Source of the DNA: a virus
DNA length: 64,000 nucleotides
Direction: 5' to 3' (one strand)
IMG/VR virus record: IMGVR_UViG_3300043787_000193
Location: 1 to 64,000 of that record
In this document: piece by piece, positions 1,872 through 37,237 of the stretch
Position numbering within the stretch: the stretch's first letter is position 1
Layout: each line of letters opens with the position of its first letter
Program-made: the position numbers and the translations under genes
Notes under the pieces: model-generated
Databases searched by the model: none
Seen by the model: the letters and a program-made list of their open reading frames with translations, nothing else
Told to the model about the DNA's origin: nothing

Positions 1872-1997
1872 TTAAGTCTGGAGGGTCAGCGTGCTCAGAC
1901 CTTCGAGAATGCGGCGGACGTCTTCCCTCAGACGGGGGCTCTGGGTCAGTTGGTTGACCTGCTCCATCAGTTCGGAAAGGAGTTGATCACGGGTCAT
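1872..1997 (-). CDS. 41-residue hypothetical protein, last gene of early operon
   Basis: The start ATG (1997-1995) overlaps the stop of the upstream methyltransferase in an ATGA arrangement, implying translational coupling. The 41-residue product (MTRDQLLSELMEQVNQL...) is mostly one or two amphipathic helices with no cysteines. I do not recognise it. It is the promoter-distal end of the minus-strand early operon and converges on the plus-strand zinc-finger gene with only 20 bases between stops; I see no terminator hairpin in that gap. Confidence 0.55.
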   Translation of the reverse strand: MTRDQLLSELMEQVNQLTQSPRLREDVRRILEGLSTLTLQT

Positions 1998-2548: not shown

Positions 2549-2551
2549 GGT

Positions 2552-19672: not shown

Positions 19673-20794
19673 CTATCGGCGTTGCTTGCGGGCTTCCTCG
19701 GCTAGGGCGTGGCGGATGTTGCCGCCGTAATAGCTCATGGCGGGGCCTTCCGCTTCCCGTTCTTCTTGCTGGATCTTCGAGAGTTCGAGCATGGCTTCGG
19801 TGGGGGATTTCTTTTTCCAGAGTTCGCCCACGCGCTCGCTCACGCGCTGATCGTAAGTTTTCTTGGTAGGCTCAGGGTGCGACATGACGACGTATTTCGA
19901 GGCGTCCGCCGCGTGGTTGTCTTTATCGACGATGGCCTCACTCAAGTTGCGGCTCATCAACTGCTGCGCCGTAAGCTTCACTCGGCGGGTGCGCATCAGC
20001 TCCCACAGCAGGTTTGGACAGTCCCACTGGTGAAGTCCCGGCTGCGGACGTTCGCTCGAATTGCGGCAGACGATGCGGATCGTAGGTTCGCGTTCGTCGA
20101 GATTCGACCAGTGCAGCAACATGCGCTCCGCGAAACTCACGTCGGAGCGGTCGCCGTGAAACTTCGAGAAGATTCCCAGGCCTTCCTCGTCGTAGAGTTC
20201 CGCGATCGACTTGGCGCGCGCCTGCGCTTCTCCTGGCCGGGCCTGCCCCTGCTCCATGTTGGCGGGGAAGATGCTCGGGTCGGCGTGACACACGTCCATG
20301 CGAAACACGTCCTGCATTTCTTTCAACCGAGGCGCGTGCTGCGCCACTTCCATGCCCGGCACGTAGTACTCGCCGCAGAAATAACCCACTCCGTCGTGAT
20401 CGAAGTAGCAGCGCTCCAAAACGGTGGGATTGGTTTTGCCGTAATCGAAACCGCCTTCGAGACGCCACTCCGGATGCGGCCGCCAGCGCGGATCGGTGAT
20501 AACGATCTTCGACCAATAAGTGGTGAGCGTGGATGCAAACACTAATTCTCCGCCGCCGGCTTCATCGCGGATGTCCTGCTCGCGGTCCCAATCGGCCTGC
20601 GAAGTGTATTTCTTGCGTTCCGTCTTTTTCCAGTCGGGATTGGTGTCAGGGTTGCGCTCAGGATGGACCGAGTAGTGCAGGCGAACCACAGGAATGCCGC
20701 CCGAGGTGCGACGGATGCGCTCGCCGGGGCGCACTTCCACGTCGCTCTGGGCGGGCAGTTTTCTTGTCTTCACTAACGCTTCGAGCGCTTTCAT
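19673..20794 (-). CDS. terL: Large terminase, nuclease half
   Basis: 373 residues from ATG 20794. It carries the RNase H-like nuclease features of large terminases: a first acidic strand (LEGGFDYGKTNP), a second (MDVCHADPSIFP) and a third (DNHAADASKYVV), plus an N-terminal linker with RIRRTSGGIPVVRLHYSVHP. It cuts the phage concatemer during packaging. It is in the same frame as the ATPase half and separated from it only by TGA 20803-20801 and two codons (Ser-Cys). Thus the normally single terminase is split by one stop. Reinitiation at ATG 20794, six bases after the stop, could supply this half. Confidence 0.85.
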   Translation of the reverse strand: MKALEALVKTRKLPAQSDVEVRPGERIRRTSGGIPVVRLHYSVHPERNPDTNPDWKKTERKKYTSQADWDREQDIRDEAGGGELVFASTLTTYWSKIVITDPRWRPHPEWRLEGGFDYGKTNPTVLERCYFDHDGVGYFCGEYYVPGMEVAQHAPRLKEMQDVFRMDVCHADPSIFPANMEQGQARPGEAQARAKSIAELYDEEGLGIFSKFHGDRSDVSFAERMLLHWSNLDEREPTIRIVCRNSSERPQPGLHQWDCPNLLWELMRTRRVKLTAQQLMSRNLSEAIVDKDNHAADASKYVVMSHPEPTKKTYDQRVSERVGELWKKKSPTEAMLELSKIQQEEREAEGPAMSYYGGNIRHALAEEARKQRR

Positions 20795-20800
20795 GCAGGA

Positions 20801-21577
20801 TCAATCTTCGCTGGTGCGGATGATGTCGTGGCGTGCGTCGGCGTACCAGCCGGGTCCAGCAGAGGAGTTGAAAATAATCTTGCCCTTCACCGCGGAAATC
20901 GCTTCGTTGTAGCATTCGCCGGCGTCCGCCTGAAACGAGCTTTCATCGTTCAAGTAGCCCCAAGGGTGATAGCTGCGCACCTGGTCGGCCCCTCCGGGGA
21001 TGCCCACGATGTATCCGCCGGCCGCAAAACTCAGCGAATGCTCCGGCTGCAGGTCCACGGGCTTCGTGAGTGGGTAGGCATCCTTCAACCACTGAGGTTG
21101 TCTTCGATAGAGACACTTCGCGTATTCAACGAGCTGGATTACCTTGTCGTCCTTCTGGGTCTGGAAGAGAACGCCGCGGTGCGGGACGCGCATCGCATTC
21201 AAGGTGAGATAGGCGACACAAGCCCAGGAGACCATCAGGTCGCGCGATTTCTCAATCCATGTGATCTGTTCCGCTTCGAAAATCTGGAACAGATCCTGAA
21301 AATAATCGAAGCGGGGAAACTTCTCGTAAGGCGACGGCCGCTTTTCCTCCACCCAGTGTTCGTTGTAGGTTTCAGTGTGCTCCGTAGCCCAGATATAGGC
21401 GTCGCGCGTGGCTTCTTCGGCCTTGCCATCGCGCTCGGCCACTTGCACGCTGAGATCCTCGGGCGGTTTGTAGCGCGCGCGCTGGGTCAATTCGAAACGG
21501 GCATTGGCCAAGCCCCAGCGCGGATCGGTGCGCAAGCGGTAGTTTGAGAGCTGCGGCAGTGTCGCGTTACGTTTCAT
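20801..21577 (-). CDS. terL: Large terminase, ATPase half
   Basis: 258 residues from ATG 21577 (11-base overlap with the small-subunit gene). KSRDLMVS at 110-117 fits the atypical Walker A of terminases, and PWGYLNDESS fits Walker B. The coupling-motif region NSSAGPGWYADARHD follows. The frame stops at TGA 20803-20801 after IIRTSED. The same frame continues uninterrupted into the nuclease domain, so either the ATPase acts as a separate subunit, or UGA is read through (for example as Trp), or the sequence carries a nonsense mutation. Confidence 0.85.
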   Translation of the reverse strand: MKRNATLPQLSNYRLRTDPRWGLANARFELTQRARYKPPEDLSVQVAERDGKAEEATRDAYIWATEHTETYNEHWVEEKRPSPYEKFPRFDYFQDLFQIFEAEQITWIEKSRDLMVSWACVAYLTLNAMRVPHRGVLFQTQKDDKVIQLVEYAKCLYRRQPQWLKDAYPLTKPVDLQPEHSLSFAAGGYIVGIPGGADQVRSYHPWGYLNDESSFQADAGECYNEAISAVKGKIIFNSSAGPGWYADARHDIIRTSED

Positions 21578-22079
21578 CGTCAGGAGCGGCAAAGCGAGCA
21601 GGCAGAGCGCCAGTGCGGTGATAGGTTTCCAGTTCCTCATCGGTCCAGCCGGCGAAGAGATCATGTGAAGAATTCCGGCTCGACATGCCGAAGATGTCTT
21701 TGAGTTCGCGCAGGGCGGCGACCTTGGCGGAATCGGTTTCGGCGCTGGTCGAAAGTGCGTCCAATCGGTTGATGATGTCGTTGCGCGTGATGGTGACGCC
21801 TTCGGCTTCGCGTTCTCCGAGGTTGGCGACGAACGCATCTTCCTTTTTCTTCAGCGCAGCCTGTACGTTGGGCAGGCTGAATAGCTTCGACGCTACCCGG
21901 TCGGGAGTCTTTGACTTCGAGCCGGCGTCGATGACCGCCTGAGTTTTGTTGCCCTTGAATTTCTCTACGCATTTGCGTTGAAAGGCGGTGAGGGGCTTGT
22001 CTTCCGGAGCTACCTGTTTACGCTTCTGGTTCTTCGTTTTCGAGTGCTTGGGTGCTGGTTTTGCCGGGTGCTTGGGCAT
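21567..22079 (-). CDS. terS: Small terminase subunit
   Basis: 170 residues. After a basic tail (KTKNQKRKQ) comes LTAFQRKCVEKFKGNKTQAV, then SLPNVQAALKKKEDAF, the Terminase_2 helix-turn-helix signature (family knowledge: recognises the packaging site). A central coiled-coil region and an acidic C-terminus (GWTDEELETYH) for docking on the large subunit follow. It is located immediately upstream of the large subunit, as usual. Confidence 0.8.
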   Translation of the reverse strand: MPKHPAKPAPKHSKTKNQKRKQVAPEDKPLTAFQRKCVEKFKGNKTQAVIDAGSKSKTPDRVASKLFSLPNVQAALKKKEDAFVANLGEREAEGVTITRNDIINRLDALSTSAETDSAKVAALRELKDIFGMSSRNSSHDLFAGWTDEELETYHRTGALPARFAAPDDET

Positions 22080-22142: not shown

Positions 22143-25100
22143 TTATTGCGCGACCAGTTCGGATTGCGCCGGCGCTGGGCTCTGCCAGCTATAGCGGGCG
22201 CGGGCCTTCTTCTGGGACAAAATCTTTTCGAGCATCTTGATCTCGTGCTCGTCTTTGTCTTTGCGCGCGGCTTCCAGAACTTTTTCGGTCTCGGCGATCG
22301 TGAAGTTGTGCACCATGTCTTCGAGGGGGTCTAACTTGGCGCGATGTTCGAGGCTCAAAATCTGGCGGTGTGTCAGTTCGCGCTTGGCTTCGGCGTCTTT
22401 CAAGGGCTGGCGGTTGCCCTGGCGCAACTGGTCGAGGATCTCGCGGCGCTCCACGCGACTCTTGTGATCTTCCGGATACTCGGCTTCAGTGCCTACTTTC
22501 GCGGCGGCGATGTCTCCCGCAACTTTCTCGGCGCGGGTTTTCCCGAACTGCACCCCCGCCTGCTGCCAGAAGAATTTCTTTTTCTGTGCAGTGGTCTCGG
22601 CGCGTTCGTATTGCCCGACCTGTCCGAAGTCTCCGAGCAGGTAGTGCGCGAGTTGCTGATACTGGATGTCCCAAGGGGCGTGCGGGTCGTAAATTTGGTG
22701 CCCGGAAAAGAATTCCCGGTTGAGCGCCAACTCTGCCGCGCCTTTGGAGAACGGGGAAGGGGTCACCACTTTCTGCAACGCGCTCAATACATCCTGTTTG
22801 TGCTCGGCAACTTGCGTGGCGGCATCGACATAGCCGGCGGGTCCGGGACGACGCCATCGCGCATGCTTGTCGCCGGTCAACTTCTGCGCGGCTTTGTCGA
22901 AGACGTAGGGGAAGAGAACCATAGTGATCAACCCCAGCATGGCAAGGCGGTCCCAGCCTTTGCCGACTTCTTCCGCCTTGGTACGCCCAGCAGAAGGGGT
23001 CTGCGCGCCCAAGGCGGATTTCGCGCTTTCCGCGAAACTCTTCAGCAGGCCGTAGTGATACGCTCCGAACCAACTGATGAGCGGATTGCCCATGATCTTC
23101 GAAGCGGCGCGGCTGTCGGCGATGCGCGAGGGCAGGCGATATTCGGGGATGATCTTGCCCACTTCCTTGAAAGCGTCCGAGAGGGAAGTTCCGGGGTGTT
23201 CCGACTGGTACTGGTAGGCCGCCTGCAGATACATCACGTCGGAAGAGAACCAGGCCGCGATCGAGGAAGGCTTGTGCAGCAAGTTCAGCAGGTTCCCATG
23301 CTCGATGCCGAGCGCTTCCGCGATCTTCATGGCCCAGTGTTCTTTTTTGTCGAGGCCTTCGGCAAGCCGGTCGAAGAATAGTTTGTGGATGTCCTTCAGG
23401 TCTTCGCGGTGGGATTGCAGGGCGGCGCCGGCGTCGAGCGCGTCGAGGAAGTCCTGATTCTTTTCGAGCACGGCTTTCACTGCTTTGCCGCCCGTCTTGT
23501 AGATTGATTTCCACTTCCACGGGGCAAAACCGCTCAATCCCTTTTCGAAGCCCCAGCTTGCCGCGACGTTCAGCGGGTGGACGATGGGGTTGATCAGGTA
23601 GGCCGCGCGCAGGAACTTTTGTACGGTTTCCAGAACGCCAAATTGTCCCTTGTCTAATCTCTCGGCGTAGTCATTCAGCACTTCGGCGGTGCGGGGCTCG
23701 AAGTAGTAGCCGCGGAACTGGGGTAGAGTGGTGGTCTTCCAGCCTTTGGGCGGATTGCCGGTTCCGTTCCACGCTACTTCTTTGAATTCCGGGGAGGCTT
23801 TGTAGGCGTTGAGGAAGCGCAGGGCATCGACAGCCGAGCCAAGTTGTACGTTGGACGCAAAGAGAGAGGCGAACAGCGAGTGATAGTACTCCAGTTCGGT
23901 GTTGGCTTCGATCTCCTTAGTGGTAGCCTGCGTCACTTTCCAGTCGTAGCCGTCCGGCCCTTCCACGATCTTTCCTTTTTCGTAGAAGACAGAATTCGGC
24001 TCGCCCTCGGGGAAGGTTTCATTCTCGACCGGCGAGCGGCCTTTGGCGTTTTTCACAGCGCCTAGCTCCGTGGGTTCGCCGTTCACCCACATGGTTGCTT
24101 TACCGTCTTTGATCGAGATCACGCGCCGTTCGTCACCGTCCGGGGATTCAATCGCCATCATGGTGCGGGTTTTGGTCTGGGGGGCGGATTTCGAGAGAGT
24201 CCCTCTGGTCCCGACAGCTTTCACGCCGCGGGCGATGCGGTCCAGCATGCCGCCTTTGCCTTTCACTGATCGCGAGACGTAGTTCTCGATGGGGATGCCG
24301 CCGTCGGTTAACTCTTCGAAATACTCCGTGTTCTGCTCATCGAGCGGCAGGGCCACGTCGTCGAACCAATCATCCTGGCGCGCGTCGAGTTGCACGTTCT
24401 CGGGGTCTTCCTTGTGATCGTAGAGAACGGCATCGGAAGCGTGAGTCAGTCCTTGCTTCTTGAGTTTCTCGAAGGCGTCTTTCGCCCGGAGAATGCGCGC
24501 CTGTTTTCGAGTGTCAAGGGTTTCGAGGCCGCGTTGTAAGTTGCGCGCGAGTTCGGTCGCGCGATTGACTTCCCGCACGTAGTTACCGATCGTGCCGGCG
24601 GCCTCGGCCACGGCTTTTGCGAGTTCACCGGGGCGGGCTTCGCCGGATTCATCCTTGATCAGCCGGCCCAGCACGGAATCGCCGCTCTCTGGTTCGTCTT
24701 CTCCCTGATCGGCGCTGGCGTCGATGTCGGAAGCGATTTCCTGTTCGTGCGCCGCCTGAAATTCGTCGTTGCCAAGACGCTGGTTGACTTCGCGCAATTC
24801 GCGGCGGCCTTCAGTCAGTTCCTTGGTGTCGAAGGCTTTCTCTTCTTTCGCGAGTTCTTCAAGGCGGGCGACGCGATCGCGGCGGAACTTGATTGCCCCT
24901 TCCATCTCTTCAATGGTGTGCGGCAGGTTGCGCAGAACGTGTTCTGCTGATCGAACCACAGAGGAGAGGGTTGTTTCGGGGGCGGTATATGTCCCGTTCG
25001 AGAGTCCGTCGATGCCTTCTGGCCCCCTGTGTTCTCCGACTCCCGCGCCGCCCCATGAGCGGTAGATGGTGGGGTAGGGAAGCCGGTATTCGAGGTATTC

Positions 25101-28100
25101 AACCTGCCCCTCGCTCAATTTTCCGCTTTCTTTGCGGTCTCTTAGATAGTCGTTGATGCCCTTTGTCGGGTTCTTCTTCAGGAATTCGGCGAGGTGGTCG
25201 CTACTGTCGCCCTGCTTGAGTTTGGGCTCAACGATGATTGGTAGCCCGTTCAGCTTGAGGTGTAGATTGGAAAGAGGGGTTTCCTGCTTTTCCAGCCACT
25301 CGTTTGCTTTGGTCCGGTCATCAAACTTCTGCCCGAGAATGTCGAGGCTGAAGGTTTTTCCGTCCGCGCCTGTGGCTTCGCGGTAGTTGGCCGCCGCCTG
25401 CTCCATCGAGGCTTTGCCCGCCTTGAAGCGTGCGATGCGGTTCTCTTCGCTTTCGATCAGCCCTTGCCGTTGCCGCGCCTGGGCATCGTGCTGCTCGGAT
25501 AGAATCTCCTGTTTGCGAATCTTTGCTTCCAGTTCCATCTTCCGCTTTACGTCGGGGTTGCCGGAGGCGATGGCCTTCATTTCTTCGTAGGAGAGAACGG
25601 CGTCCGAGGCGGCGTCGGTGATGGTGTCGCCCACGTCCTTGCCGGCGAGCGCCTGCCAGATGAATTTCGCTTTCCCCTCGAGCGTCTGCCCCATGTAGGC
25701 ATCGAAGGAGTGCTCGGTTGCGTACCAGTAGAGCCGGACAACGGGGTTAGTGTTGCCCTGGCGCTCGATGCGACCGGTGCGCTGCTCCAGTTCGCCCGGC
25801 TTCCACGGGAAATCTACGTGATGCTCGGCGATGAGCCGCCGCTGTGCGTTGGTCCCCGCGCCCATCTTCTGCGTCGAACCCAGCAGGACGCGGACCTTGC
25901 CCTCGTTGACTTCATCGAACAGGGCGAGTTTCTTTTCCGGGTTGTCGTAATCGTGGATGATGGCGATTTCGTTTTTCGGAATCCCTTGCTTCACCAGCAG
26001 ATCGCGGATCTCGTGGTAGAGATTGAATTCTTCTTTCTTGGTCGCGGGGTTGGTGTAGCGGAAGCGATCGGCGAAGATCATTTGCGTGACCTTGTTGGCT
26101 TCGCCGTCTTTATATTCCCGAACTACGTTCTTGACCACATCGTGAATCTTTGAGTACTGCCCGGAGGCCTTCGGATCGAGCAGGCGCGGATCGGTCGCCG
26201 CCAGCCGCCCCTCGGTGACCACCGAGAGCATGTTGTCTTCCTCCGGCTTCGGCTTCGGGAAGTACTCCATCTTCACGCGCTTGCCCACCTTGCCGGTCTT
26301 CGGGTCGGTGTATTCCTCCATCACGGGCTTCCCGGCGTCGTCGAGCACGGGAACGCCTTCTCCGCGGATCGCCGCGGCGCGCCGGACCAGGTTGCGCACA
26401 ATCGGTTCGATGTCGGGGTTCTTGACGCTCACCATCTTCGGCCCGCCGCCTTCGATCTTCGGCAGCAGGGCTTTTAATTCCGGCAAGTCCTCATTGGTCT
26501 TCACGTCGGCGAAGGAGTTGAACATCCGTTGCAACTCTTGCACGTTGGTGAATTCGGCGAACTTGGAGCGGGGTTTGTAGCTCTCGGCGTCGGGCGAGAG
26601 TTCCATGGCGGTGATGATCTTGCCGAAGTTGGCGGCCCAGTCGTCGAAGTATTTGATCCCGGCCTTTTCGAGCACGTCCGGGGCGACGTAGCGAATCATG
26701 TTGTACATCTCCGCCATGGTGTTCTGCACCGGGGTGCCGGTCGCGAAGTACACGCCGCGGTTGTTGTTGCGGTCGAGAAGGTAGTCCGTCTTCATCTTCA
26801 GCCGCGTGGCGCGTTTTGCGTTGCCCTGGGCGAGGCCGGCCACGCGCTGCATCTTGGTGTAGAACAGCAGATTCTTGTATTCGTGGGCTTCGTCCACGAA
26901 CAGAGTGTCGATGCCGGTATCGTCGAAGTTGATGGCCTTGTCTGATTTCAGGTTGGCGAGCGAGGCGATCTTCGCCTCCAGATTGGCCTTTGCCTTCTCC
27001 ATCTGTTTCACTGAACGCTTGTGCGCGCGACTGGAGGCCTTGTCCCGGTTGCCGCGGCCCTGCGCTTCCATGCCTCGAATCGTTTCTTCCAGTTCGTCGA
27101 GGTCCTTTTCGAGCGTCTTGCGCTGGCGCTCGGCGGAAATATCCATCAGGTTGAAATGGGAGTGGGGCATGATGATGGCGTCCCAATCGTTGTTCGCCAT
27201 CTTTGCCATCGCGATCTGCCGGTTCTTCGCGCTGAAATCGTCTTTTCCTACCACCATGACGTTCGCGCCGGGGTAGAGCTTCGACCAGTCCCGCGCCCAC
27301 TGCTCGACCAGGTGATTCGGGACGGCGTAAAGAATCTTCTTGGCAAGCCCCAACCGCCGCAACTCGGCTCCGCTCGCGATCATGTTGTAGGTCTTGCCCG
27401 CGCCGACGACTTGCGCGATCAGGCCACGGCCCTGCTGCACGTTGCGCCAGATTCCATCTCGCTGGTGGGGCATGAACTGACTATTGCGCAGCACTGCCAG
27501 ATTCGCGCCGGGGAAGGTCAGGTGTGCGCCGTCCGCCTTCGGTGCGACCAGATTGTTGTATTTGTCGTTGAACAGGCGCGCCAGTTGCGGAGACCACTCG
27601 CGGTGATCCTTCATCCACTTCGAGAAGTTGTCGCTGAGTTTCTCTTGCAGTTCGCGGGCGGCGACGGTGCGCTTCTGATTCACCACGCGCCGCTCTGCGG
27701 TTTTCCCCTCGTCGTTGATGTAGGTTTGCAGATCGTAGGAAGTCGGCTGTTTCAGGTTCAGCGCCAGCTCCATCAGATCGGTCGCGGAGAATTCGGCGTT
27801 CCCGTATTGGCTGATGTTCTCCGCCGACTCGCGCGTGTTGTCGATCTTCCAGGTGCCGCCGACGCTTGAAACCTTCACGTCATAGGGTTGCTTCAGGAAG
27901 TCGTTCAGGAATTGCTGGGTGGCTTCGGTGGGAATCCACGTCGCTCCCGGCCGCACGGCGATGCGCTCGATAGGCTTGTCGGGAGGGATGACCTTTTCGA
28001 GGGCCTCCACATTGGCCTGATATTCTTTGGCTCCTTGCGCGACGGCCGCTTTCGCGTCGGCGAGTTTGTCGCGCACGTAGCCCGAGAGATAGTCGTCGGC

Positions 28101-31100
28101 CATCTTGTAATCGCCGCCGACTGGATCGCGGAAGACCAAGCCCTTATCCAGCAACTCCTTTGCGACTTCAGCGAGATCCTTGCCGGCGAGCTGTGCCATG
28201 AACTCCAGGTCGGGCCGGCCACGTTCGTTGAGCACCTGAAAGAGCGCGTCTTTCGGGTTGGAGGAGAGTGAAGTTGCGGTCAACTGCTCGCGCGGGAAGA
28301 TGGTGCGCCGGGTGAAGATTTCCGCCGGTGTGGTTCGCTTGGTGGTCTTGTTGAATTGTTCCAGGGCCGCGAGGCGCGGGTAGTACGGGTCTTGCCCGAA
28401 GACGTTCGCCGCCGCGGGGCTGCGCACCAGGCCGTGCTTGTCGAGGTAGGTTTTGTAATCCTTCAGCAAAGCCTTCTGCTTCTGGGCCACGATGCTGTTC
28501 CCGATGTCGTCGTTGGGAACGGTTTTCATGGTGTACATCAGATCGGTGAGGGTGTCGCGCAGCTTGATCAGCTTCTTGACTCGATCCACAAACACCGGAG
28601 ACGTTCCGCCTTCCTTGGCGCGGATGTTCGGCGGGTTCAGCAGAGTCCCACCGTTGTGCTTCTGGCGGACCTCGCCCTTGTCGTCAAGGAAGTAGTTGCC
28701 GTCGATCAGGTGCTCGGGGGCGAGGTTCAAAGTCTCAGCCGGGAATAGTCGCGTGGATTTGTAATCGTCGATGACGTTCTTCGGCACGCGCTCCAGGGCT
28801 TCCTTGAGTTGATCTTCGAAGGGCTTCTCTTTATCCGGCAGCAGCACGAGATCGTTCGAGCCGTACATGCGGCGCGAGATGGCGAGTTTGCCGAGCATGT
28901 TCTCGGGGTGCTTATTGAAGTACTCGTTCAGAAAATCCTTCGCCATGCCGCCGTCTTGCTCGTGCGGGGCTTCGACGGGAACGACCTTGGTGAAAGGCTG
29001 GCCTTCGGACTCAACCCCTGGCGCGCGCTTTTGAAAGATCAGCAAATCGGTGGTGACGTGGGTGCCGGCGGTCTTCTCGAATGTCGTAGCAGGGAAGCGA
29101 AGGGCAAATACCAGATCGGCCTTATTCGCCATGACCTCCCGGATGCGCTCGTTCGGTTTATCGAGTGTGCCGGTTGAGGAGATCAGCGCCGCCACTCCGC
29201 CGGGCCGCAATTTGTCGAGAGACTTCACGATGAAGTAATCGTGGATGCGCGCCTTCAGCTTGGGATAGTGCGGGTCAAAGATTTCCTCCCCGAACGGAAC
29301 GTTGCCGATCACCATGTCAATGGAGTTGTCCGGCAGCATGAGATCGACGAAGTTCTTGTTAAACAGGTTCGCCGAGGGATATAGCAATTTTGCGATGTTG
29401 AACGTGGTCGGGTCGAGTTCATTGCCGATGGCCTGGCTCTTACCGCGGATCGCCTTCGGCATCGTCCCAAAGAAGTTCCCGCTACCCATCGAGGGCTCTA
29501 ACAACGTTCCGCCCGTGAAGCCGAGCCGCTTGGCGGCGTCCCACATGAAGCGCGTGATCTGCGGGGAAGTGAAGTGGGCGTTGATGGTCGAGGCGCGGGC
29601 GCGCGTGATCTCGTCCGGAGTCATCAACTCTTTGAGTTGGTTGTGGGCTTCGATCCACTTCTTCTGTTCGCCGTAGGGAGAATCGTAGGGACGGAAAGCG
29701 TGCGGCAGTGCGCCCCAGCCCACGTAGTGCGCCAGAGCATCACGGTCTTCGTCGGTGAGTTTGATTTCGCCGGCGAGAACTTTCTTGAGGATGTTAAGGG
29801 CTTTGAGATTCCACGCGAGGCGTTGCGTGTTGCCGGCGGCGACCGAGAAATCTTCCGGATGAGTGAACCAGTCGGCGTTCTTGCGAGTGGCTACGCCTTC
29901 TGTTCTTCGAGTTCCGCGTCCTCCGGCAGTCTCTCCGACGGCAGGAATAGGTGTTCGTTCGCCAGTTCCTGTGCCTGGTCGAGGCTCAACCCCTTCTTTT
30001 CCGCTTCCTGCAACACGCGGACTGCGTTCTCCGCCGCGTTGTCCAGGCGTGGATTCAACTGATTGCTCCGTTCGAGCGACTTCACCAGCTTGGGGTTCCA
30101 CTCGCGCCAGTTCCGCTCCGCGTCCGCTCTCAGGACTGGGAACCTCGCGTCTTCCTTCGGTGGTAGGCTGAGGTTGTTCATGGCCTGCTCCGGGCTCTAT
30201 TTTAGCCCCGTTGGGAGCGGTTGGCGCAAGATTTTCTTTTGTGGGCTCTACCGCTTGGCCGCGGAAGGTGAAGGGGTGTTTCTTACGGTAGGCCTGCTCT
30301 TTCTGCAACATCGCCAGTTCTTTTTGCAGGGCTGGAACCGTGGCCGCGCGATTCGGATTCGCAATGTGAGCCTCAACCTGCGCCGCCCGTTTCGCGATAA
30401 CTTCGTCGCTGGCTTTCTGGATCGGATGCCAGTCTCCCTTAAAGAAGAAGCCTTTCTCGTGACCCTGTTCCATCTCCGGAGTGTGTTCTGCCGCCGCCGG
30501 CTTCGCTTCCGCATTCCTAGTGTCGATCCAGTCTTCAGCTTCTGCGCGGGTTTTGAATCCGGTTGCAACCGTTTTCGTTGGCCCAGAGGTGTCGATAACG
30601 TTGAAGCCAGCGCCAACACCCGGCATTGCCACTTCGTATTGTGGCTTTTCGGTGACCGGAGTCGCAGCAATGCCGCCCTCTTCGGTCGGGGTGATCTCGT
30701 GTTTCTGCCAGGAGAATTTCGGCTTGGGCTTTTCTGCGACAGCGACGCCTTCATCCTTAGGTCGCTCGAAGGCTTCCAGATTCTCAAGCTTGATATTCTC
30801 GACGTGGCCGCTGAGTTCTTCGCTGCCGTGCCCAACGTAGCGTTCCACTGTGGCTGATTTCGCGTCGGAGTCAACGATCTTGCCGTGGCGCACGGTGCCG
30901 CTCTTATCGGTCCAGCGAACAGGCTGCCCGTCTTTGAACTTCGGCCCCCCACCCTTCCCAACTCCCGCTCCCACAAACGTCGGCAGCCCATAAGAGTAGT
31001 TCGGCTCGACTTGCGGAGTGACGGGCTTCTTCGGTTTCTCCAGCGCGATCTCCGGCATCTTCATCCCCGCCGCCGTGCCGCGCTTCGTCATAAACGACTT

Positions 31101-34100
31101 GATCGGCGACATCGCTTTCGCGAGAGCCTCTTCGGTCGCGAGCTTCGGACTCTGAATTAAATCCATCAGGGATTGCGCTGCGTGCGCGGGCGCTTTCCAG
31201 TAGGGCCATCCGTCGCTGTGGGAATCGACTTCTTCGACAAATTCTTTGAGGAACTTTGTGGCCTTGCCGAGTACGGGATGTTTGGCGAATCGTTCTACGG
31301 CTTCATCCACATCCCAGCGGTTCAGCCAGTGGCCGTGGGGGATTTCGACCGGTCGCGTCTCGCCGGCGCCCGACGACTGATCCGTCGTTTCCTCCGGCGC
31401 AGGCGACGGCTTCGCTCTCCACGATTCCCGTCGCGGGGCGGGCTTGCCCTCCAGCTTGACCATTTCCTGCGATCCATCTTTTTTCGAGATGGCGATTTCT
31501 GAGACCGTGAACTTCTTTCCCTTGGTGACATCCATCCCCACGTAGCGATCCGCTTTCGCTGGATCCACGTAAGCCACCGTTGCGTGCGGTTTGTACTCTT
31601 TGAACGAGGGTTCGGCGAAGTCTCCGTGCTTTTCGAGGTCCGCGTTCAGGCGATGCAACTCTGGGGCAACGATTGGCGCGATGATCGGGGCAGAGCCTTC
31701 GGAGTGTTCGCTGACGGGGAATTTCTCGGTCGGGCCGAGCGACGCCTCAAACGGAGCTTGTTCGGAGAGGAACTTGCGGACGCCTTCGGTATCTTCCCCT
31801 TGAATCCCATATCTGACGGTAACGTGATTGCCGCCGTCCCCAATTTCTTTTCCCTTACCCGCGAGGTCGGAGTCCGAGATGCGAGAGCGCGCCGATTCTA
31901 GGGCTTTCGCCGCTTCGGATTCGGCGGGGATGTTGGCCTGAGTGGAACCAAATTTGTACTTCGGGGTTTCAGCTTCAGCAACTTTCGCAATTTGCGCTGG
32001 TTCTCCGGGCGGCTGAGGATGTCCGCTACCGCTGGGTCGTCCAGCAGTTTCAGCAGGGATTCCGCCTGCTCCGCTCGGCTCACGAGGCGGAAGGGCAGTT
32101 GAAACGGTTTCATTGGCTGGGGTTTTGGCGGGTTCCGCAACCGCTCCAGATACAACTCGTTGCACCGCTCCACCGTTAGGTCCACGATCTGCTGTATTGT
32201 GATCTGCGCCATTTCCCGATTCTACTTTCTTCCCCGGTTCAACCGCTCCCCCTTTTTCTCGTCCGCTTCTGGTGATGAATCCCCCCGGCTTCGGCTTCTC
32301 TCCCAACTCCATTTCCAAGTTGCGGGAGTGGGTGACGACGACCGGCTTTTCCCCCTTAGCGACTAACGCTTCGACATCCTTCAATGCCGCATCTTGCCGC
32401 TCGCGGGCCTGATTCCACGTTTCGCCGCCTTTCGGAAGCTGGTCAGGGTTCTGCTCGTAGGAGTTCCAGATGGGAGTAGCTTCGCCGACCTTTAGGCCTT
32501 CGGTTTCCGGAACGTGCTGCGGGCGGAGGCGAGAATCTTCTTGGACCGGTATTCCTAATTGCTTGCCGACGATGTCTGCGGTCTGTCGGGCGCGGGGTAA
32601 ATCGCTGGTGATGATCACTGTCGGCTTTTGCTCTTGGATGCCCGCAGCGAGCTTCTGGGCGGCGGCTCGGCCCCGTTCGTCAAGGGGTTCGTCCGTCCAG
32701 CCGGCTACGGTCTCGTTCGCCCCCGCCTGGTCGAGTTTGGTTTCCCCGTGGCGGGCGAAGATGATGGAGCCTTTGGTGACGTCAGATTGGGCGACTTGTT
32801 CTACTGCGGGTGCGCTGGCTCGTCCTGAATTCTCTGGAGTTCCTTCGCCGAGATGAACCACCCCTGACTCGCCAGCGCTTCCGAGATTTCCTGTTTCGTT
32901 CGCGGGTCGCGTGCTAACGCCGCGCGCAGTTCCTTGTTCGTCCTGATGAAGTCCCCTGCGTCCATTCGGGAGGCCATTTTCTTGAGTGCCGCTCTGAGCC
33001 GCTCGTGCACTTCCATTGCCCGATTCTACCTCCGCCCTCTTCACCGCTCCCCATTTTTCTGCCGGGACACTGGCTTTTCCCCCACCATCGAGCGCCACAC
33101 GAATCAGTCTTGAATTGGCGTGGGCAACCGTTCCAGTATCGCCCTTCGGTAGGACAACCCGATCTCCGACTGCAAATGCTTGCGATGGCTTCCCCGGTTC
33201 CTGAGTTGATTCGTCGAGCGTAAATCCGGCGGGAGGGGCGGGAACTGGTTCTGCGGCTGCTTTCTTTGCTTGCGCGTCTTGCCGGCCGATTTCTTCATTG
33301 ATCAACCTCTGGGCCAAAGTCTCCGCTTGTTTCTGGTTGCGCACGATCTCGACTTTGCCGTCGATGGTGAGCTTGCCCTGGTTCAATAATTCTGTGGCGA
33401 GGGCGGTGTGTGCCGCGAGCGTCGCCTGCGGCCGCTCTTCGTGCGGAAGTTTCGCGATCTTGTCCCCGATGTCCGCGATCTCGTCCATGCTGATCGAGTG
33501 CATGGGTTGGACTTGGCCAGGTAAGGCAAGAGGAGGTTCTCCGGGCTGACGCGGGGCGGGCGGCGGAGGTGTCGGGCTGAAGCGTCCGGCACGTCGCAGA
33601 ATGTCGGCTGAATGGTTGAGGTTTGTCATCTCCTCCATGTGTGCCGGATTCACGTCGGGGTGAAGATTGAAAGCCGCAGCACGGTGAGCTGCGTTGAATT
33701 GCTCAAGCGCCGGTTCTGCAGGAAGATCGACGCCTGTGTAGTTGTAGACCAGGTTCCGGAACAGTGCTTCAGCTCGAGGAACGCCTTCGGGGGGAAGGGC
33801 TTCGTAGGGCTTGCCATGCAGGGCGGGACTGAGTAACAGCGCTCCTACTCCGGTTTGTGCGCCGAGTTCCGCGCGCTGCTCGGGCGTCATCTCATCCCAG
33901 TGCTCGTAGAGATTCTGGGCTCCCTCTGCGGTCTGCAATCCGATTTGGCCCCGGAAGCCTACGGACATCAGTTTTTGCAACAAGGGCCGGGCCGCACTGC
34001 TGGCGAAGAACGGCCACATGCGCGGATCAGCTACAACGCCGCCAGCCATTTCTCCAGCACCTTTCAACACCCCCTGCTCGACCGGATGTTCCTCTTCGGC

Positions 34101-34610
34101 TTCTGCGGTCAATTGGGCGAATGGGGTAGAGTTCTGCGCCGCCGGATAATCGGCAGGCGGCGCTCCAGTGTGTGCAGCGGCAGTGTAAGGCGCTGCCGCT
34201 CCGAATCCTTTGGCCAATTCTCCGCCCGCTTTCGCACCTGCCTGCGCCGCGCGAACCGGAAGCTGCACAACCTTATTGGCGGTGGCGAGGGCGGGCATCA
34301 CAGATTGCGGGACAGCTTCACCCCCGCCCGTTCCCGTGGTAGCGGCTTCGAGCAAGTCGAGAGCGCCCTCCTTACCCTTGACGATCTGCGCCTTCGGCGG
34401 CGGCGTGCTGAAATCAAAATTACTTTTCGCCTCGGGTATCGTCCCGCTCCAACTCGGTCGCCGTTGGTTCATCGTCACAGGCACAGACGGAGTTGCGCCT
34501 GTATCCGCATCCAGCGCAAAGCCTTTCGGCGGCGGCGGCACTGCCCCCGAAGAGTCGTCGTCTAAGACGAAACCCTTCGGAGGCGCCGGGATGTCCTGAA
34601 CTTCAGGCAA
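22143..34610 (-). CDS. Giant polyvalent protein: methylase-helicase with phosphatase and phosphoesterase domains
   Basis: 4155 residues from TTG 34610. Domains in order: PPxGFxLD motifs (about 10-36 and 458-468); a J-domain-like helix with HPD at 317-319; a KOW-like strand set (478-520); a histidine phosphatase (RHGET at 620, TH at 760); a 2H phosphoesterase with HVTV (929) and HATV (1009); a second KOW-like segment (about 1225-1258); an N6-type DNA methylase (LLEPSMGSGNFFG at 1703, NVPFGE replacing NPPY at 1770); an SNF2-type helicase (VGAGKT 2402, DEAH 2573, ATGTPVQN about 2623, QRTGRIERQGN 2943); coiled coils; and a C-terminal helical region with a hydrophobic segment near 3890-3905. This matches the 'polyvalent protein' class and resembles P1 DarB, a methylase-helicase packaged in the virion for anti-restriction. 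Its place among internal virion genes suggests ejection with the DNA (inference). Confidence 0.9.
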   Translation of the reverse strand: MPEVQDIPAPPKGFVLDDDSSGAVPPPPKGFALDADTGATPSVPVTMNQRRPSWSGTIPEAKSNFDFSTPPPKAQIVKGKEGALDLLEAATTGTGGGEAVPQSVMPALATANKVVQLPVRAAQAGAKAGGELAKGFGAAAPYTAAAHTGAPPADYPAAQNSTPFAQLTAEAEEEHPVEQGVLKGAGEMAGGVVADPRMWPFFASSAARPLLQKLMSVGFRGQIGLQTAEGAQNLYEHWDEMTPEQRAELGAQTGVGALLLSPALHGKPYEALPPEGVPRAEALFRNLVYNYTGVDLPAEPALEQFNAAHRAAAFNLHPDVNPAHMEEMTNLNHSADILRRAGRFSPTPPPPAPRQPGEPPLALPGQVQPMHSISMDEIADIGDKIAKLPHEERPQATLAAHTALATELLNQGKLTIDGKVEIVRNQKQAETLAQRLINEEIGRQDAQAKKAAAEPVPAPPAGFTLDESTQEPGKPSQAFAVGDRVVLPKGDTGTVAHANSRLIRVALDGGGKASVPAEKWGAVKRAEVESGNGSARAAQSGTQENGLPNGRRGLHQDEQGTARGVSTRPANETGNLGSAGESGVVHLGEGTPENSGRASAPAVEQVAQSDVTKGSIIFARHGETKLDQAGANETVAGWTDEPLDERGRAAAQKLAAGIQEQKPTVIITSDLPRARQTADIVGKQLGIPVQEDSRLRPQHVPETEGLKVGEATPIWNSYEQNPDQLPKGGETWNQARERQDAALKDVEALVAKGEKPVVVTHSRNLEMELGEKPKPGGFITRSGREKGGAVEPGKKVESGNGADHNTADRGPNGGAVQRVVSGAVAEPAKTPANETVSTALPPREPSGAGGIPAETAGRPSGSGHPQPPGEPAQIAKVAEAETPKYKFGSTQANIPAESEAAKALESARSRISDSDLAGKGKEIGDGGNHVTVRYGIQGEDTEGVRKFLSEQAPFEASLGPTEKFPVSEHSEGSAPIIAPIVAPELHRLNADLEKHGDFAEPSFKEYKPHATVAYVDPAKADRYVGMDVTKGKKFTVSEIAISKKDGSQEMVKLEGKPAPRRESWRAKPSPAPEETTDQSSGAGETRPVEIPHGHWLNRWDVDEAVERFAKHPVLGKATKFLKEFVEEVDSHSDGWPYWKAPAHAAQSLMDLIQSPKLATEEALAKAMSPIKSFMTKRGTAAGMKMPEIALEKPKKPVTPQVEPNYSYGLPTFVGAGVGKGGGPKFKDGQPVRWTDKSGTVRHGKIVDSDAKSATVERYVGHGSEELSGHVENIKLENLEAFERPKDEGVAVAEKPKPKFSWQKHEITPTEEGGIAATPVTEKPQYEVAMPGVGAGFNVIDTSGPTKTVATGFKTRAEAEDWIDTRNAEAKPAAAEHTPEMEQGHEKGFFFKGDWHPIQKASDEVIAKRAAQVEAHIANPNRAATVPALQKELAMLQKEQAYRKKHPFTFRGQAVEPTKENLAPTAPNGAKIEPGAGHEQPQPTTEGRREVPSPESGRGAELARVEPQAGEVARTEQSVESTPGQRGGERSPRVAGSGKEGVEPRPGTGTGERTPIPAVGETAGGRGTRRTEGVATRKNADWFTHPEDFSVAAGNTQRLAWNLKALNILKKVLAGEIKLTDEDRDALAHYVGWGALPHAFRPYDSPYGEQKKWIEAHNQLKELMTPDEITRARASTINAHFTSPQITRFMWDAAKRLGFTGGTLLEPSMGSGNFFGTMPKAIRGKSQAIGNELDPTTFNIAKLLYPSANLFNKNFVDLMLPDNSIDMVIGNVPFGEEIFDPHYPKLKARIHDYFIVKSLDKLRPGGVAALISSTGTLDKPNERIREVMANKADLVFALRFPATTFEKTAGTHVTTDLLIFQKRAPGVESEGQPFTKVVPVEAPHEQDGGMAKDFLNEYFNKHPENMLGKLAISRRMYGSNDLVLLPDKEKPFEDQLKEALERVPKNVIDDYKSTRLFPAETLNLAPEHLIDGNYFLDDKGEVRQKHNGGTLLNPPNIRAKEGGTSPVFVDRVKKLIKLRDTLTDLMYTMKTVPNDDIGNSIVAQKQKALLKDYKTYLDKHGLVRSPAAANVFGQDPYYPRLAALEQFNKTTKRTTPAEIFTRRTIFPREQLTATSLSSNPKDALFQVLNERGRPDLEFMAQLAGKDLAEVAKELLDKGLVFRDPVGGDYKMADDYLSGYVRDKLADAKAAVAQGAKEYQANVEALEKVIPPDKPIERIAVRPGATWIPTEATQQFLNDFLKQPYDVKVSSVGGTWKIDNTRESAENISQYGNAEFSATDLMELALNLKQPTSYDLQTYINDEGKTAERRVVNQKRTVAARELQEKLSDNFSKWMKDHREWSPQLARLFNDKYNNLVAPKADGAHLTFPGANLAVLRNSQFMPHQRDGIWRNVQQGRGLIAQVVGAGKTYNMIASGAELRRLGLAKKILYAVPNHLVEQWARDWSKLYPGANVMVVGKDDFSAKNRQIAMAKMANNDWDAIIMPHSHFNLMDISAERQRKTLEKDLDELEETIRGMEAQGRGNRDKASSRAHKRSVKQMEKAKANLEAKIASLANLKSDKAINFDDTGIDTLFVDEAHEYKNLLFYTKMQRVAGLAQGNAKRATRLKMKTDYLLDRNNNRGVYFATGTPVQNTMAEMYNMIRYVAPDVLEKAGIKYFDDWAANFGKIITAMELSPDAESYKPRSKFAEFTNVQELQRMFNSFADVKTNEDLPELKALLPKIEGGGPKMVSVKNPDIEPIVRNLVRRAAAIRGEGVPVLDDAGKPVMEEYTDPKTGKVGKRVKMEYFPKPKPEEDNMLSVVTEGRLAATDPRLLDPKASGQYSKIHDVVKNVVREYKDGEANKVTQMIFADRFRYTNPATKKEEFNLYHEIRDLLVKQGIPKNEIAIIHDYDNPEKKLALFDEVNEGKVRVLLGSTQKMGAGTNAQRRLIAEHHVDFPWKPGELEQRTGRIERQGNTNPVVRLYWYATEHSFDAYMGQTLEGKAKFIWQALAGKDVGDTITDAASDAVLSYEEMKAIASGNPDVKRKMELEAKIRKQEILSEQHDAQARQRQGLIESEENRIARFKAGKASMEQAAANYREATGADGKTFSLDILGQKFDDRTKANEWLEKQETPLSNLHLKLNGLPIIVEPKLKQGDSSDHLAEFLKKNPTKGINDYLRDRKESGKLSEGQVEYLEYRLPYPTIYRSWGGAGVGEHRGPEGIDGLSNGTYTAPETTLSSVVRSAEHVLRNLPHTIEEMEGAIKFRRDRVARLEELAKEEKAFDTKELTEGRRELREVNQRLGNDEFQAAHEQEIASDIDASADQGEDEPESGDSVLGRLIKDESGEARPGELAKAVAEAAGTIGNYVREVNRATELARNLQRGLETLDTRKQARILRAKDAFEKLKKQGLTHASDAVLYDHKEDPENVQLDARQDDWFDDVALPLDEQNTEYFEELTDGGIPIENYVSRSVKGKGGMLDRIARGVKAVGTRGTLSKSAPQTKTRTMMAIESPDGDERRVISIKDGKATMWVNGEPTELGAVKNAKGRSPVENETFPEGEPNSVFYEKGKIVEGPDGYDWKVTQATTKEIEANTELEYYHSLFASLFASNVQLGSAVDALRFLNAYKASPEFKEVAWNGTGNPPKGWKTTTLPQFRGYYFEPRTAEVLNDYAERLDKGQFGVLETVQKFLRAAYLINPIVHPLNVAASWGFEKGLSGFAPWKWKSIYKTGGKAVKAVLEKNQDFLDALDAGAALQSHREDLKDIHKLFFDRLAEGLDKKEHWAMKIAEALGIEHGNLLNLLHKPSSIAAWFSSDVMYLQAAYQYQSEHPGTSLSDAFKEVGKIIPEYRLPSRIADSRAASKIMGNPLISWFGAYHYGLLKSFAESAKSALGAQTPSAGRTKAEEVGKGWDRLAMLGLITMVLFPYVFDKAAQKLTGDKHARWRRPGPAGYVDAATQVAEHKQDVLSALQKVVTPSPFSKGAAELALNREFFSGHQIYDPHAPWDIQYQQLAHYLLGDFGQVGQYERAETTAQKKKFFWQQAGVQFGKTRAEKVAGDIAAAKVGTEAEYPEDHKSRVERREILDQLRQGNRQPLKDAEAKRELTHRQILSLEHRAKLDPLEDMVHNFTIAETEKVLEAARKDKDEHEIKMLEKILSQKKARARYSWQSPAPAQSELVAQ

Positions 34611-34613
34611 GGT

Positions 34614-35216
34614 TTACTCGGTTGGTTCCGGGCTGTCCTGGGCAGGCTTCGGAGCTTCGGGCGCGGCGGGCGCTTGGTCAAGAAGCGTAGCGACATCTTG
34701 CCCGGTGGTATCCGTCGCTCCGTCCGGCGCGGGCGACGAGTCGGCGGGATCCGCAGGCGACGACGAGTCGGCGGTCGACGTCGGAGACGAATCCTCATCC
34801 TCATTCTCGTCTTCATCTTCCTCGGGCGCGGCGGGCGGTGTGTATTCTCCCGGTAGGAACCAGAACCGCTCGCTCTCTTGCGCTCCTTCGGCATCGACGT
34901 GAGGAACGTCGTGTTCCACGGAGACGGCGTTTTGCCAGTCCGCACCCATCATCGAATTCCCGTTGTGATAGATCAAGCTGATGCGCGGCGCGGAGCCGTT
35001 CTGCGATGGCGGTGCGACCAGCACCAGCGCATCGTCCACTACCAGTTCCGTGGGAACCGGCTTGTGATGGCGGAATTGGGTTTTCACCGTCTTGCTGCTT
35101 TTAGGATCGAGATCGGTGGGGTCTTTGCTTACGACCGTGAAGGGTTTGCCGAGAACCGAATGCCCGGTCGCGACGCGATGCTGAAACCTGACTGCGGTGC
35201 CTACTCCGTCGTTCAT
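34614..35216 (-). CDS. Hypothetical protein with acidic disordered tail
   Basis: 200 residues. The first 125 look folded (beta-rich: FQHRVATGHSVLGKPFTVVS, ELVVDDALVLVAPP). The remaining 75 are an Asp/Glu/Ser/Pro tail (EEDEDENEDEDSS...). It ends three bases before the TTG of the giant protein, so translation is probably coupled. Acidic tails of this sort occur in virion-internal and DNA-mimic proteins; no assignment is possible. Confidence 0.6.
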   Translation of the reverse strand: MNDGVGTAVRFQHRVATGHSVLGKPFTVVSKDPTDLDPKSSKTVKTQFRHHKPVPTELVVDDALVLVAPPSQNGSAPRISLIYHNGNSMMGADWQNAVSVEHDVPHVDAEGAQESERFWFLPGEYTPPAAPEEDEDENEDEDSSPTSTADSSSPADPADSSPAPDGATDTTGQDVATLLDQAPAAPEAPKPAQDSPEPTE

Positions 35217-35219: not shown

Positions 35220-36620
35220 TTACTTTCCTCCTGAATTGGGTACGAGCATCCATTGCCCGGTTGATTTGTAGTAGCCGATCTTGCCTTGTCCGGCGGTGCG
35301 CAGAGGCTTCTCGCCGGCTGGACCTGTCTTGGTGGGGGCTTCGTCGGAAGTGGCCGCTGGTTTCGGTTTCGCTGCCGGAGTTGCCGCGGGCGTTGTGCTT
35401 GCCGGTTGTGCGGCCTGTGAGCCTTTTTGCCACGAGGCTACGTCTTGATGCGGGATATTGCCACCGAGTTCTGTGCCCTTCACTTCGTAAGCGTTCTCGG
35501 CGCGTTGCAGGTCGTTAGTGTGTTCGTCTTCAATGGCCGCGAGCGCCTGTTTGTATTCTTCGGTTCCGGGCTGCTTGTCGATGTCGAGTTGTTTGCGTGC
35601 TTTGCGATACTTATCTTCGGCTGCGGTGATCGCAATCTCTTTGGTTTTTTCCGTCGCCAGGACCTGGTTGGTGTGATCCTTCGCCTTGTCGCCTTTCGCT
35701 TCTTTCCAGTCCTGCACCCGCTCCCGCAGATGTTCCAGTTCCTGATGCAGCGCGTAATCGTCTTTGTATTTCGCGGCGAGATCCTGAATGTGTTGCAGGT
35801 AGGCCGCGTTTTTTTCCTGACTATTCTTGTCGCGCTCGCTGTTCCACTGCTCGCGCAGGGCGTTGAGTTCTTCTTTTGCCTCCGCGTTCTTAATGGCGCT
35901 GAAGCGTTCCCGATTCTCCGTGGCTTCTCTGAGCCCGAGTTCGCCTTGATGGTAAGCAGTTGTGGCCGCCGATTCCGCCAAGGGCACTCCCGCCTTGTCC
36001 ATCTCTAGGCGTTGCGTCCACGGAGCAAGGGCAGTGGCGCGGGATTGTTCGGCTCCCGCACGTCTCCGGTTCACCACTTCGCTCGCGACCGCTCCGGCGT
36101 TCTGCGGGTCTTTGAGTTGCGTGGCCCCCAAGCCGAATCCCACCAGTCTTTCCCACAGCCGGGGCTTCACCTTCTGGGGGTCGATCCGGTTGGCTTCGTC
36201 GGCATGTTGATAGCCTGCGAGGTCCGATTTGTACTGATTCAGTGCGGGATTTAAGTAGGAGCCGAGGTCGGGCGTCTTCGGCATCTCCCCCATGCTGGTT
36301 GCGGCACCTCTTACATTCGGGTCGTCGGTGACCGCGGGCAACTTCATCGTTGGGGTCGCGGCGGAAGCTCCCTGCGCCGACTGCGCGATGGGAGAAGGCT
36401 GCGCCATGGCGGTCGGCGCCATTCCCGGCGTCATAGCCGCAGAGCCAGTCGGCGGACGTGGAGGTCCAAACGGAGTAGCCACAGGCGGGCGTGGAGGTCC
36501 GAACGGCGCGGCATCCGGCGGCGCTACAGGTGCTCCCGGCGCGGCTCCATTCGGCGCGTACTGCCGCTTCAGCGCCGCGACCAGTTGGTCGGGCATGGGT
36601 GGAACAATGAAAGAAGGCAT
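35220..36620 (-). CDS. Coiled-coil virion or ejection-type protein
   Basis: 466 residues in three parts: a Pro/Ala-rich N-terminus with a repeated PFGPPRPP motif (about 38-60), a long charged coiled-coil centre (about 180-380; KNAEAKEELNALREQWNSE and similar), and an Ala/Thr/Pro linker ending in a small domain GKIGYYKSTGQWMLVPN. This architecture is common in internal head or ejection proteins. It lies between the 201-residue protein and the giant gene in one operon. Confidence 0.55.
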   Translation of the reverse strand: MPSFIVPPMPDQLVAALKRQYAPNGAAPGAPVAPPDAAPFGPPRPPVATPFGPPRPPTGSAAMTPGMAPTAMAQPSPIAQSAQGASAATPTMKLPAVTDDPNVRGAATSMGEMPKTPDLGSYLNPALNQYKSDLAGYQHADEANRIDPQKVKPRLWERLVGFGLGATQLKDPQNAGAVASEVVNRRRAGAEQSRATALAPWTQRLEMDKAGVPLAESAATTAYHQGELGLREATENRERFSAIKNAEAKEELNALREQWNSERDKNSQEKNAAYLQHIQDLAAKYKDDYALHQELEHLRERVQDWKEAKGDKAKDHTNQVLATEKTKEIAITAAEDKYRKARKQLDIDKQPGTEEYKQALAAIEDEHTNDLQRAENAYEVKGTELGGNIPHQDVASWQKGSQAAQPASTTPAATPAAKPKPAATSDEAPTKTGPAGEKPLRTAGQGKIGYYKSTGQWMLVPNSGGK

Positions 36621-37235: not shown

Positions 37236-37237
37236 AG

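What the first reader, a model, noticed from the sequence alone, without database searches (positions are those of the whole stretch)
22143..34610. A 4155-residue methylase-helicase 'polyvalent' protein, apparently virion-associated
Seen: one uninterrupted gene with J-domain-like HPD, histidine phosphatase, 2H phosphoesterase, N6 methylase (NVPFG instead of NPPY) and SNF2 helicase motifs. Known: P1 DarB and other polyvalent proteins with methylase-helicase cores are packaged and protect phage DNA from restriction. Inferred: its place between ejection-type genes and terminase suggests it is injected with the DNA. The phosphatase plus 2H phosphoesterase pair could act on nucleotide second messengers or tRNA ends used in host defence.
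Basis: partly seen in the sequence, partly recalled or inferred. Interest (0 to 1): 0.8.

Follow-up and report, generated by a model that had tools for sequence, protein, structure and literature searches.

The report
Giant phage anti-defence protein, DarB-like
A soil phage, probably of Acidobacteriota, encodes one 4,155-residue protein that joins a known kind of DNA-protecting methylase-helicase to two enzymes, a phosphatase and a cyclic-nucleotide-type phosphodiesterase, that could disarm host alarm signals or heal cut RNA; the class is known, but this enzyme pair in it appears to be new.

Summary
The gene is real: one open frame of 4,155 codons on the minus strand (22143-34610). Its core (residues about 1590-3040) is a DarB-like methylase-helicase (PHROG 'DarB-like antirestriction', 1379 bits). 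Histidine-phosphatase and 2H-phosphoesterase domains are confirmed with catalytic residues intact. The J-domain is not confirmed. NVPF for NPP(Y/F) is a stable clade variant (30 of 82 relatives, 4 changes on the tree) with all other motifs intact, so it does not suggest decay. Virion packaging is well supported but indirect: the gene lies in the late operon before terminase, the homologues JC1 gp69 and P1 DarB are in virions, and the N-terminus carries a tandem short motif. Such duplicated N-terminal motifs recur, with different sequences, in 24 of 41 related giants against 9 of 110 control ORFs. The 2H domain's best solved relative by profile is the anti-CBASS nuclease Acb1; both HxT motifs are invariant in 65 homologues. 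In relatives the partner phosphatase is replaced by an unrelated HAD domain, or the core is swapped or absent: a chassis with exchangeable cargo. Best reading: a packaged polyvalent effector that protects entering DNA and clears cyclic-phosphate signals or RNA ends. Substrates are unproven.

The parts
22143..34610 (-). Giant polyvalent protein gene, 4155 codons, TTG start
   Evidence: relative L002 with a start codon six residues before the same motif
34500..34592 (-). N-terminal tandem short motif (IPAPPKGFVLDDDS residues 7-20, VPPPPKGFALDADT residues 24-37); proposed capsid-targeting signal
   Evidence: self-match z=7.8, 0 of 14 internal windows as high; class test 24/41 vs 9/110
33213..33242 (-). 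Third copy of the motif (PAPPAGFTLD, from residue 457)
33552..33836 (-). J-domain-like segment with HPD (residues 259-353), unconfirmed
   Evidence: DnaJ E 0.035, below cut-off; low-confidence 3-helix model; no Foldseek match
32316..32765 (-). Histidine phosphatase domain (residues 616-765; RHGET, second Arg and second His present)
31440..31961 (-). 2H phosphoesterase domain (residues 884-1057; HVT 929-931, HAT 1009-1011), Acb1-related by profile
29022..29834 (-). LPD36-like segment (GWGA 1631) plus adenine methylase (FTSP 1680, GSGNF 1709, ELD 1731, NVPF 1770)
25641..27488 (-). SNF2/SWI2 translocase (Walker A GAGKT 2403, DEAH 2573, TGTP 2624, motif VI from 2942)
22305..24662 (-). C-terminal region conserved in this phage lineage even where the methylase-helicase core is absent
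34614..35216 (-). Upstream gene, 200 aa, three bases before the giant gene
35220..36620 (-). Upstream late gene, 466 aa, in the same position in L002 and L010
37238..37699 (-). GNAT-acyltransferase-like gene in the late operon (no Pfam match; assigned by eye and by position)
   Evidence: conserved in L002, L010, L015; Lastavirus and Lessievirus have an acyltransferase in a similar position
21567..22079 (-). Probable terminase small subunit, next gene downstream
   Evidence: by eye; conserved in L002
20801..21838 (-). Terminase large subunit, ATPase half
   Evidence: PHROG terminase E 0.011
19673..20794 (-). Terminase large subunit, nuclease half
   Evidence: PHROG terminase E 3e-4

Best explanation
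It is a DarB-like polyvalent effector of a tailed phage, probably of Acidobacteriota. It is made late, packaged in the head (the duplicated N-terminal motif is the likely targeting signal), and enters the cell with the DNA. There the SNF2 motor moves along the entering DNA and the adenine methylase modifies it, so that restriction enzymes do not cut. The 2H domain opens cyclic phosphodiesters (defence cyclic oligonucleotides, or 2',3'-cyclic-phosphate RNA ends left by defence RNases), leaving a terminal phosphate that the histidine phosphatase removes. Shown by computation: domains, intact motifs, late-operon position, homologues in virions, modular cargo. Inferred: packaging and injection of this protein (about 0.8), antirestriction (about 0.6), 2H acting on a cyclic phosphodiester (about 0.85), CBASS-type signals as the main target (about 0.4), RNA ends (about 0.3), phosphatase acting on the 2H product (about 0.35).
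For: Core: phrog_10089 DarB-like, 1379 bits; 118 phage records match, 10 of them over at least 80% of the query, the best listed mostly at 30-37% identity. All diagnostic motifs of methylase and helicase kept across 82 cores. Virions: JC1 gp69 (4515 aa, homologous core) has 51 unique peptides in purified virions (PMC9144972); P1 DarB is a head protein whose N-terminal 30 residues target cargo to the capsid (PMC9024508). N-terminal tandem motif, z=7.8; related giants 24/41 against controls 9/110. 2H: in 65 homologues the only invariant columns are H49, T51, G55, P128, H129, T131, which include both HxT motifs; best profile match in the PDB is Acb1 at 2.7e-6; model pLDDT 92 with the 2H fold. Two relatives pass the Pfam Acb1 cut-off. 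2H proteins carry a histidine or HAD phosphatase in 14 of 58 clusters against 1 of 55 DarB-like clusters without 2H; the HAD lies before or after the 2H domain in different phages and resembles polynucleotide-kinase and deoxyribonucleotidase families. Acb1 leaves a 3'-phosphate product (PMC9117128).
Against: No virion proteomics or assay for this phage. Neighbouring late genes and the C-terminus are not detectably homologous to those of the phages with virion mass spectrometry, so packaging is transferred only through the core and the position. The window's 2H domain is below the Pfam Acb1 cut-off (12 against 27 bits), and by fold it is as close to LigT, CPDases and Usb1, so the substrate is open. 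Acb1's adenosine-contacting Glu and lid could not be aligned. The phosphatase association is confounded by shared ancestry; L014 has HAD without 2H. P1-type antirestriction needs further Dar proteins, not sought here.
Confidence: 0.6

Rival explanations
1. RNA repair rather than signal clearing: the 2H domain opens 2',3'-cyclic phosphates on tRNA or rRNA cut by host anticodon nucleases and the phosphatase removes the remaining phosphate, so that RNA can be re-ligated.
For: Fold neighbours include LigT, RNA CPDases and Usb1. Partner HAD domains resemble the polynucleotide kinase family. 2H clean-up of cyclic-phosphate ends is a known repair step (PMC9503650).
Against: No RNA ligase or kinase domain was found in the protein. 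Iyer et al. never saw this type of 2H with RNA ligases (PMC5512222). The best profile match is Acb1, not LigT.
Confidence: 0.3
2. The core protects DNA without methylating it: NVPF marks a methylase that binds DNA but is inactive, and the motor or bulk of the protein shields the DNA.
For: NVPF departs from the NPP(Y/F) motif given for the family.
Against: NVPF is fixed in a large clade (30 of 82, 4 changes on the tree against 25 in shuffles) with the SAM-binding and TP motifs intact. From general knowledge, KsgA and Erm adenine-N6 methylases use NLPY or NIPY, so the second residue need not be proline.
Confidence: 0.2
3. The protein acts only in the producing cell, as a late regulator or assembly factor, and is not injected.
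For: It lies in the late operon and no virion data exist for this lineage.
Against: Homologous giants are among the best-covered virion proteins; the N-terminal tandem motif resembles a targeting signal.
Confidence: 0.12
4. The histidine phosphatase and 2H domains serve unrelated tasks (for example dephosphorylating host proteins or metabolites) and sit together only because cargo domains are shuffled.
For: Cargo is highly variable: GGDEF, RelA/SpoT and other domains occur in the same slot; the closest solved phosphatase is the broad-specificity PhoE.
Against: Two unrelated phosphatase folds recur with this 2H type.
Confidence: 0.35

Closest known systems
DarB-like antirestriction giants of Bcep22-like and Lastavirus-like podoviruses (JC1 gp69, LASTA gp01, PEp14 gp27)
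   Same: Core about 35-40% identical in the same methylase-helicase order, a single giant late gene next to virion genes
   Different: Annotations of several of these name a lytic transglycosylase part, not histidine phosphatase plus 2H; neighbouring genes and C-termini not detectably homologous; NPPF instead of NVPF
P1 DarB (about 250 kDa)
   Same: Archetype of the methylase-SNF2 dyad; virion-packaged through an N-terminal signal (PMC9024508)
   Different: Smaller; works with DarA, Hdf, DdrA, DdrB and Ulx, none of which was sought here
Acb1 anti-CBASS nuclease (T4, FBB1, BCSR5)
   Same: 2H fold and HxT/HxT tetrad; best profile match in the PDB
   Different: Stand-alone protein of about 150 aa; window domain below the Pfam Acb1 cut-off; lid and adenosine-contacting Glu not aligned
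UBASH3/Sts/TULA proteins of animals
   Same: One polypeptide combining a 2H phosphodiesterase, an SH3 domain and a histidine phosphatase (PMC10218301)
   Different: Opposite domain order, protein-tyrosine phosphatase activity, no methylase-helicase; taken as an analogy, homology not tested

Membership tests
DarB-like methylase-helicase polyvalent proteins | Adenine methylase fused at its C side to a SNF2-type helicase | tested here: met
DarB-like methylase-helicase polyvalent proteins | LPD36 segment with GXG(G/A/S), and TP motif before the methylase core | tested here: met
   GWGA at 1631 and AHFTSP at 1678, conserved across the family; motif definitions. Pfam has no LPD36 hit here
DarB-like methylase-helicase polyvalent proteins | NPP(Y/F) motif IV | tested here: inconclusive
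   NVPF instead; 30 of 82 family members share it as a clade, so the published motif is narrower than the family
DarB-like methylase-helicase polyvalent proteins | Protein present in virions and delivered with DNA | not testable with these tools
   Presence in virions shown for JC1 gp69 and P1 DarB, not for this phage
DarB-like methylase-helicase polyvalent proteins | Protects DNA in cis against restriction | not testable with these tools
   needs an experiment
Polyvalent proteins (Iyer et al. 2017) | Several effector domains in one polypeptide linked to packaging or late genes of an invasive element | tested here: met
   terminase directly downstream
Acb1 anti-CBASS nucleases | 2H fold with two HxT motifs | tested here: met
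Acb1 anti-CBASS nucleases | Pfam Acb1 (PF23474) curated cut-off | tested here: not met
   12.0 bits against 27 for this protein; met by relatives L171 and L112
Acb1 anti-CBASS nucleases | Hydrolysis of 3'3'-cGAMP-type signals | not testable with these tools
   needs an experiment
Histidine phosphatase superfamily, branch 1 | RHG motif, second Arg, second catalytic His | tested here: met
   RHGET from 620, R in SDLPRARQ from 669, H in VVTHSRN from 758
J-domain (DnaJ) proteins | Pfam DnaJ cut-off and J-domain fold | tested here: inconclusive
   14.7 bits against 27.8; low-confidence three-helix model; no Foldseek match

The most novel reading that the evidence does not exclude
The phage head carries a preloaded, two-step enzyme set: an Acb1-like 2H domain linearises defence cyclic oligonucleotides and a fused phosphatase strips the terminal phosphate, in the same injected protein that protects the DNA. 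It would be a virion-delivered anti-CBASS-type activity working before any phage gene is expressed, on a chassis targeted to the head by lineage-specific duplicated N-terminal motifs.
Probability: 0.25. Interest if true: 0.8.

Novelty: new variant of a known kind. Interest (0 to 1): 0.52.

Why it matters
Known anti-CBASS enzymes such as Acb1 are made after infection starts. A packaged one would act at time zero, alongside DNA protection. The recurrent pairing of one 2H type with two unrelated phosphatases suggests a definite two-step chemistry that can be tested with small recombinant domains. The duplicated N-terminal motifs, if they are capsid-targeting signals, would give a sequence rule for recognising injected proteins in uncultured phages and a handle for loading cargo into phage heads.

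Tried and rejected
J domain: fragment Pfam scan, single-sequence AlphaFold model and Foldseek gave no firm support, and a search for relatives of the segment found only the flanking part in L002. Inactive methylase because of NVPF: rejected as the default, since the motif is stable in a clade with intact partner motifs. Common C-terminal domain with Lessievirus-type giants: no profile match. Reading substrate from fold: LigT, CPDase, Usb1, YjcG and Acb1 are all close, so fold does not decide. Named bacterial host through the C-terminal region: no relative in genome contigs; the 2H profile found two Acidobacteriota MAG contigs instead. A PADLOC scan returned only generic SNF2 helicase and methylase similarities. 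A Pfam LPD domain was expected but none was hit. HAD domains in relatives have no Pfam or PDB match; they rest on the DxDGT motif and PHROG matches. A cellular origin was dismissed: G000 is an IMG/VR virus record of 71,229 bases with terminase and late genes.

Full report
What is there. The window lies in an IMG/VR virus record of 71,229 bases. The feature is one open frame of 4,155 codons on the minus strand, 22143-34610, starting with TTG. The previous gene ends three bases upstream, and a probable terminase small subunit and the large subunit follow. In the close relative L002 a GTG start lies six residues before the same IPAPPKGF motif, which supports the start.

Domains. Pfam finds a histidine phosphatase (616-765, E 1e-28), a 2H phosphoesterase (924-1046, E 2e-8) and SNF2-type helicase parts. 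PHROG 'DarB-like antirestriction' covers 1372-3306 with 1379 bits. In the phage collection 118 records match the core, the best listed mostly at 30-37% identity. The LPD36-type GWGA, the FTSP, the SAM-binding motif and all helicase motifs are present and conserved in 82 relatives. The methylase motif NVPF is shared by 30 of 82, with four changes on the tree against about 25 in shuffles: an old clade variant. From general knowledge, active adenine-N6 methylases of the KsgA and Erm type carry NLPY or NIPY, so this is not a sign of decay.

The 2H domain. A viral-contig search found 143 relatives, 80 of which were kept, mostly inside long multidomain proteins. In 65 aligned domains the only invariant columns are H49, T51, G55, P128, H129 and T131, which include the two HxT motifs. 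The profile's best solved match is Acb1 of a Burkholderia phage (2.7e-6), followed by YjcG, a second Acb1 entry, a plant CPDase, FBB1 Acb1 and the penguinpox cGAMP phosphodiesterase. Two relatives pass the Pfam Acb1 cut-off; the window domain does not. The AlphaFold model (pLDDT 92) has the 2H fold, about equally close to LigT, CPDases, Usb1 and Acb1. So a cyclic phosphodiester substrate is likely, but which one is open. Acb1 leaves a linear product with a 3'-phosphate (PMC9117128), which is what a phosphatase could remove.

The phosphatase partner. The window, L002 and L010 carry histidine phosphatase plus 2H. Others carry instead a HAD-type domain (DxDGT motif), before or after the 2H domain, related to PHROG polynucleotide kinase and deoxyribonucleotidase families. 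Counting clusters, 14 of 58 sets of 2H proteins have a histidine or HAD phosphatase, against 1 of 55 DarB-like sets without 2H. Lineages are not independent and the control set is more distant, so this is suggestive only. The Sts/UBASH3 proteins of animals also join a 2H phosphodiesterase and a histidine phosphatase (PMC10218301), as an analogy.

A chassis with exchangeable cargo. L010 keeps the N-terminal enzymes and the C-terminus but has a different methylase (NPPFG) and, by eye, a Strawberry-notch-like helicase in place of the core; L011 keeps the C-terminus without any methylase-helicase. The C-terminal region is shared by the window protein and 14 other entries, some of them duplicates, all within this lineage, and is not detectably related to that of Lessievirus-type giants. 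Other cargo seen includes RelA/SpoT and GGDEF.

The N-terminus. The protein begins with IPAPPKGFVLDDDS and VPPPPKGFALDADT, a near-duplicate (z=7.8; none of 14 internal windows scores as high). Related giants begin with duplicated motifs of quite different sequence, for example FQIVGEEPIP (with YQIVGEEPIP) in L010 and PWEEAAQ twice in L013. Of 41 such giants 24 exceed z=3, against 9 of 110 control ORFs from the same loci (Fisher p about 4e-10, ignoring relatedness). P1 DarB is targeted to the head by its first 30 residues (PMC9024508). I propose that these motifs are capsid-targeting signals; this is inference.

Packaging and function. JC1 gp69, a 4,515-residue relative, gave 51 unique peptides from purified virions (PMC9144972). 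The class and its proposed role, methylating injected DNA and possibly degrading defence nucleotides, are published (PMC5512222). That paper does not mention a histidine phosphatase or a J domain, and no paper found in the held library joins histidine phosphatase, 2H and polyvalent phage proteins.

Host. The 2H profile found two Acidobacteriota MAG contigs at 73% and 53% identity, both with long 2H proteins, so the host is probably in that phylum; binning errors are possible.

Verdict. Ordinary in class, unusual in cargo: a new variant of DarB-like polyvalent proteins. The J domain is not established. The most interesting open point is whether a packaged Acb1-like enzyme with its own phosphatase acts at the moment of DNA entry.

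Noticed in passing
19673-21838 (-): The terminase large subunit seems split into an ATPase ORF (20801-21838) and a nuclease ORF (19673-20794), six bases apart. L002 and L036 also have two ORFs, overlapping in different frames, while L010 has a single 541-aa ORF: gene split or frameshifting.
   Followed up: partly
57515-58441 (-): IS1595-type (ISXO2-like) transposase inside the phage late region.
   Followed up: no
61843-62478 (-): Serine recombinase (resolvase-like) read from the translation, possibly an integrase or part of a mobile element.
   Followed up: no
11432-14245, 14279-17227, 17229-19640, 54837-56477, 59485-61191 (-): Several long ORFs in or next to the late region begin with what look like Sec signal peptides (by eye); one has an Ig-like domain. 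Unusual for virion proteins.
   Followed up: no
L002 3348-4358: The C-terminal part of a late protein looks like a Hint or intein-type domain, absent from the window's counterpart at 36630-37439 (by eye).
   Followed up: no
L171 (HP region) and L015 (HAD region): Both phosphatase domains look circularly permuted: the catalytic motif that normally comes first lies at the C-terminal end (by eye).
   Followed up: no
L017, giant protein, about residues 880-1100: A cargo segment resembles tRNA-guanine or DpdA-type transglycosylases (by eye), which would suggest another packaged DNA- or RNA-modifying enzyme.
   Followed up: no
L175 and L177 (Gemmataceae genomes): Proteins of about 950-1140 aa carrying the same 2H type occur in planctomycete genomes; context not examined.
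   Followed up: no
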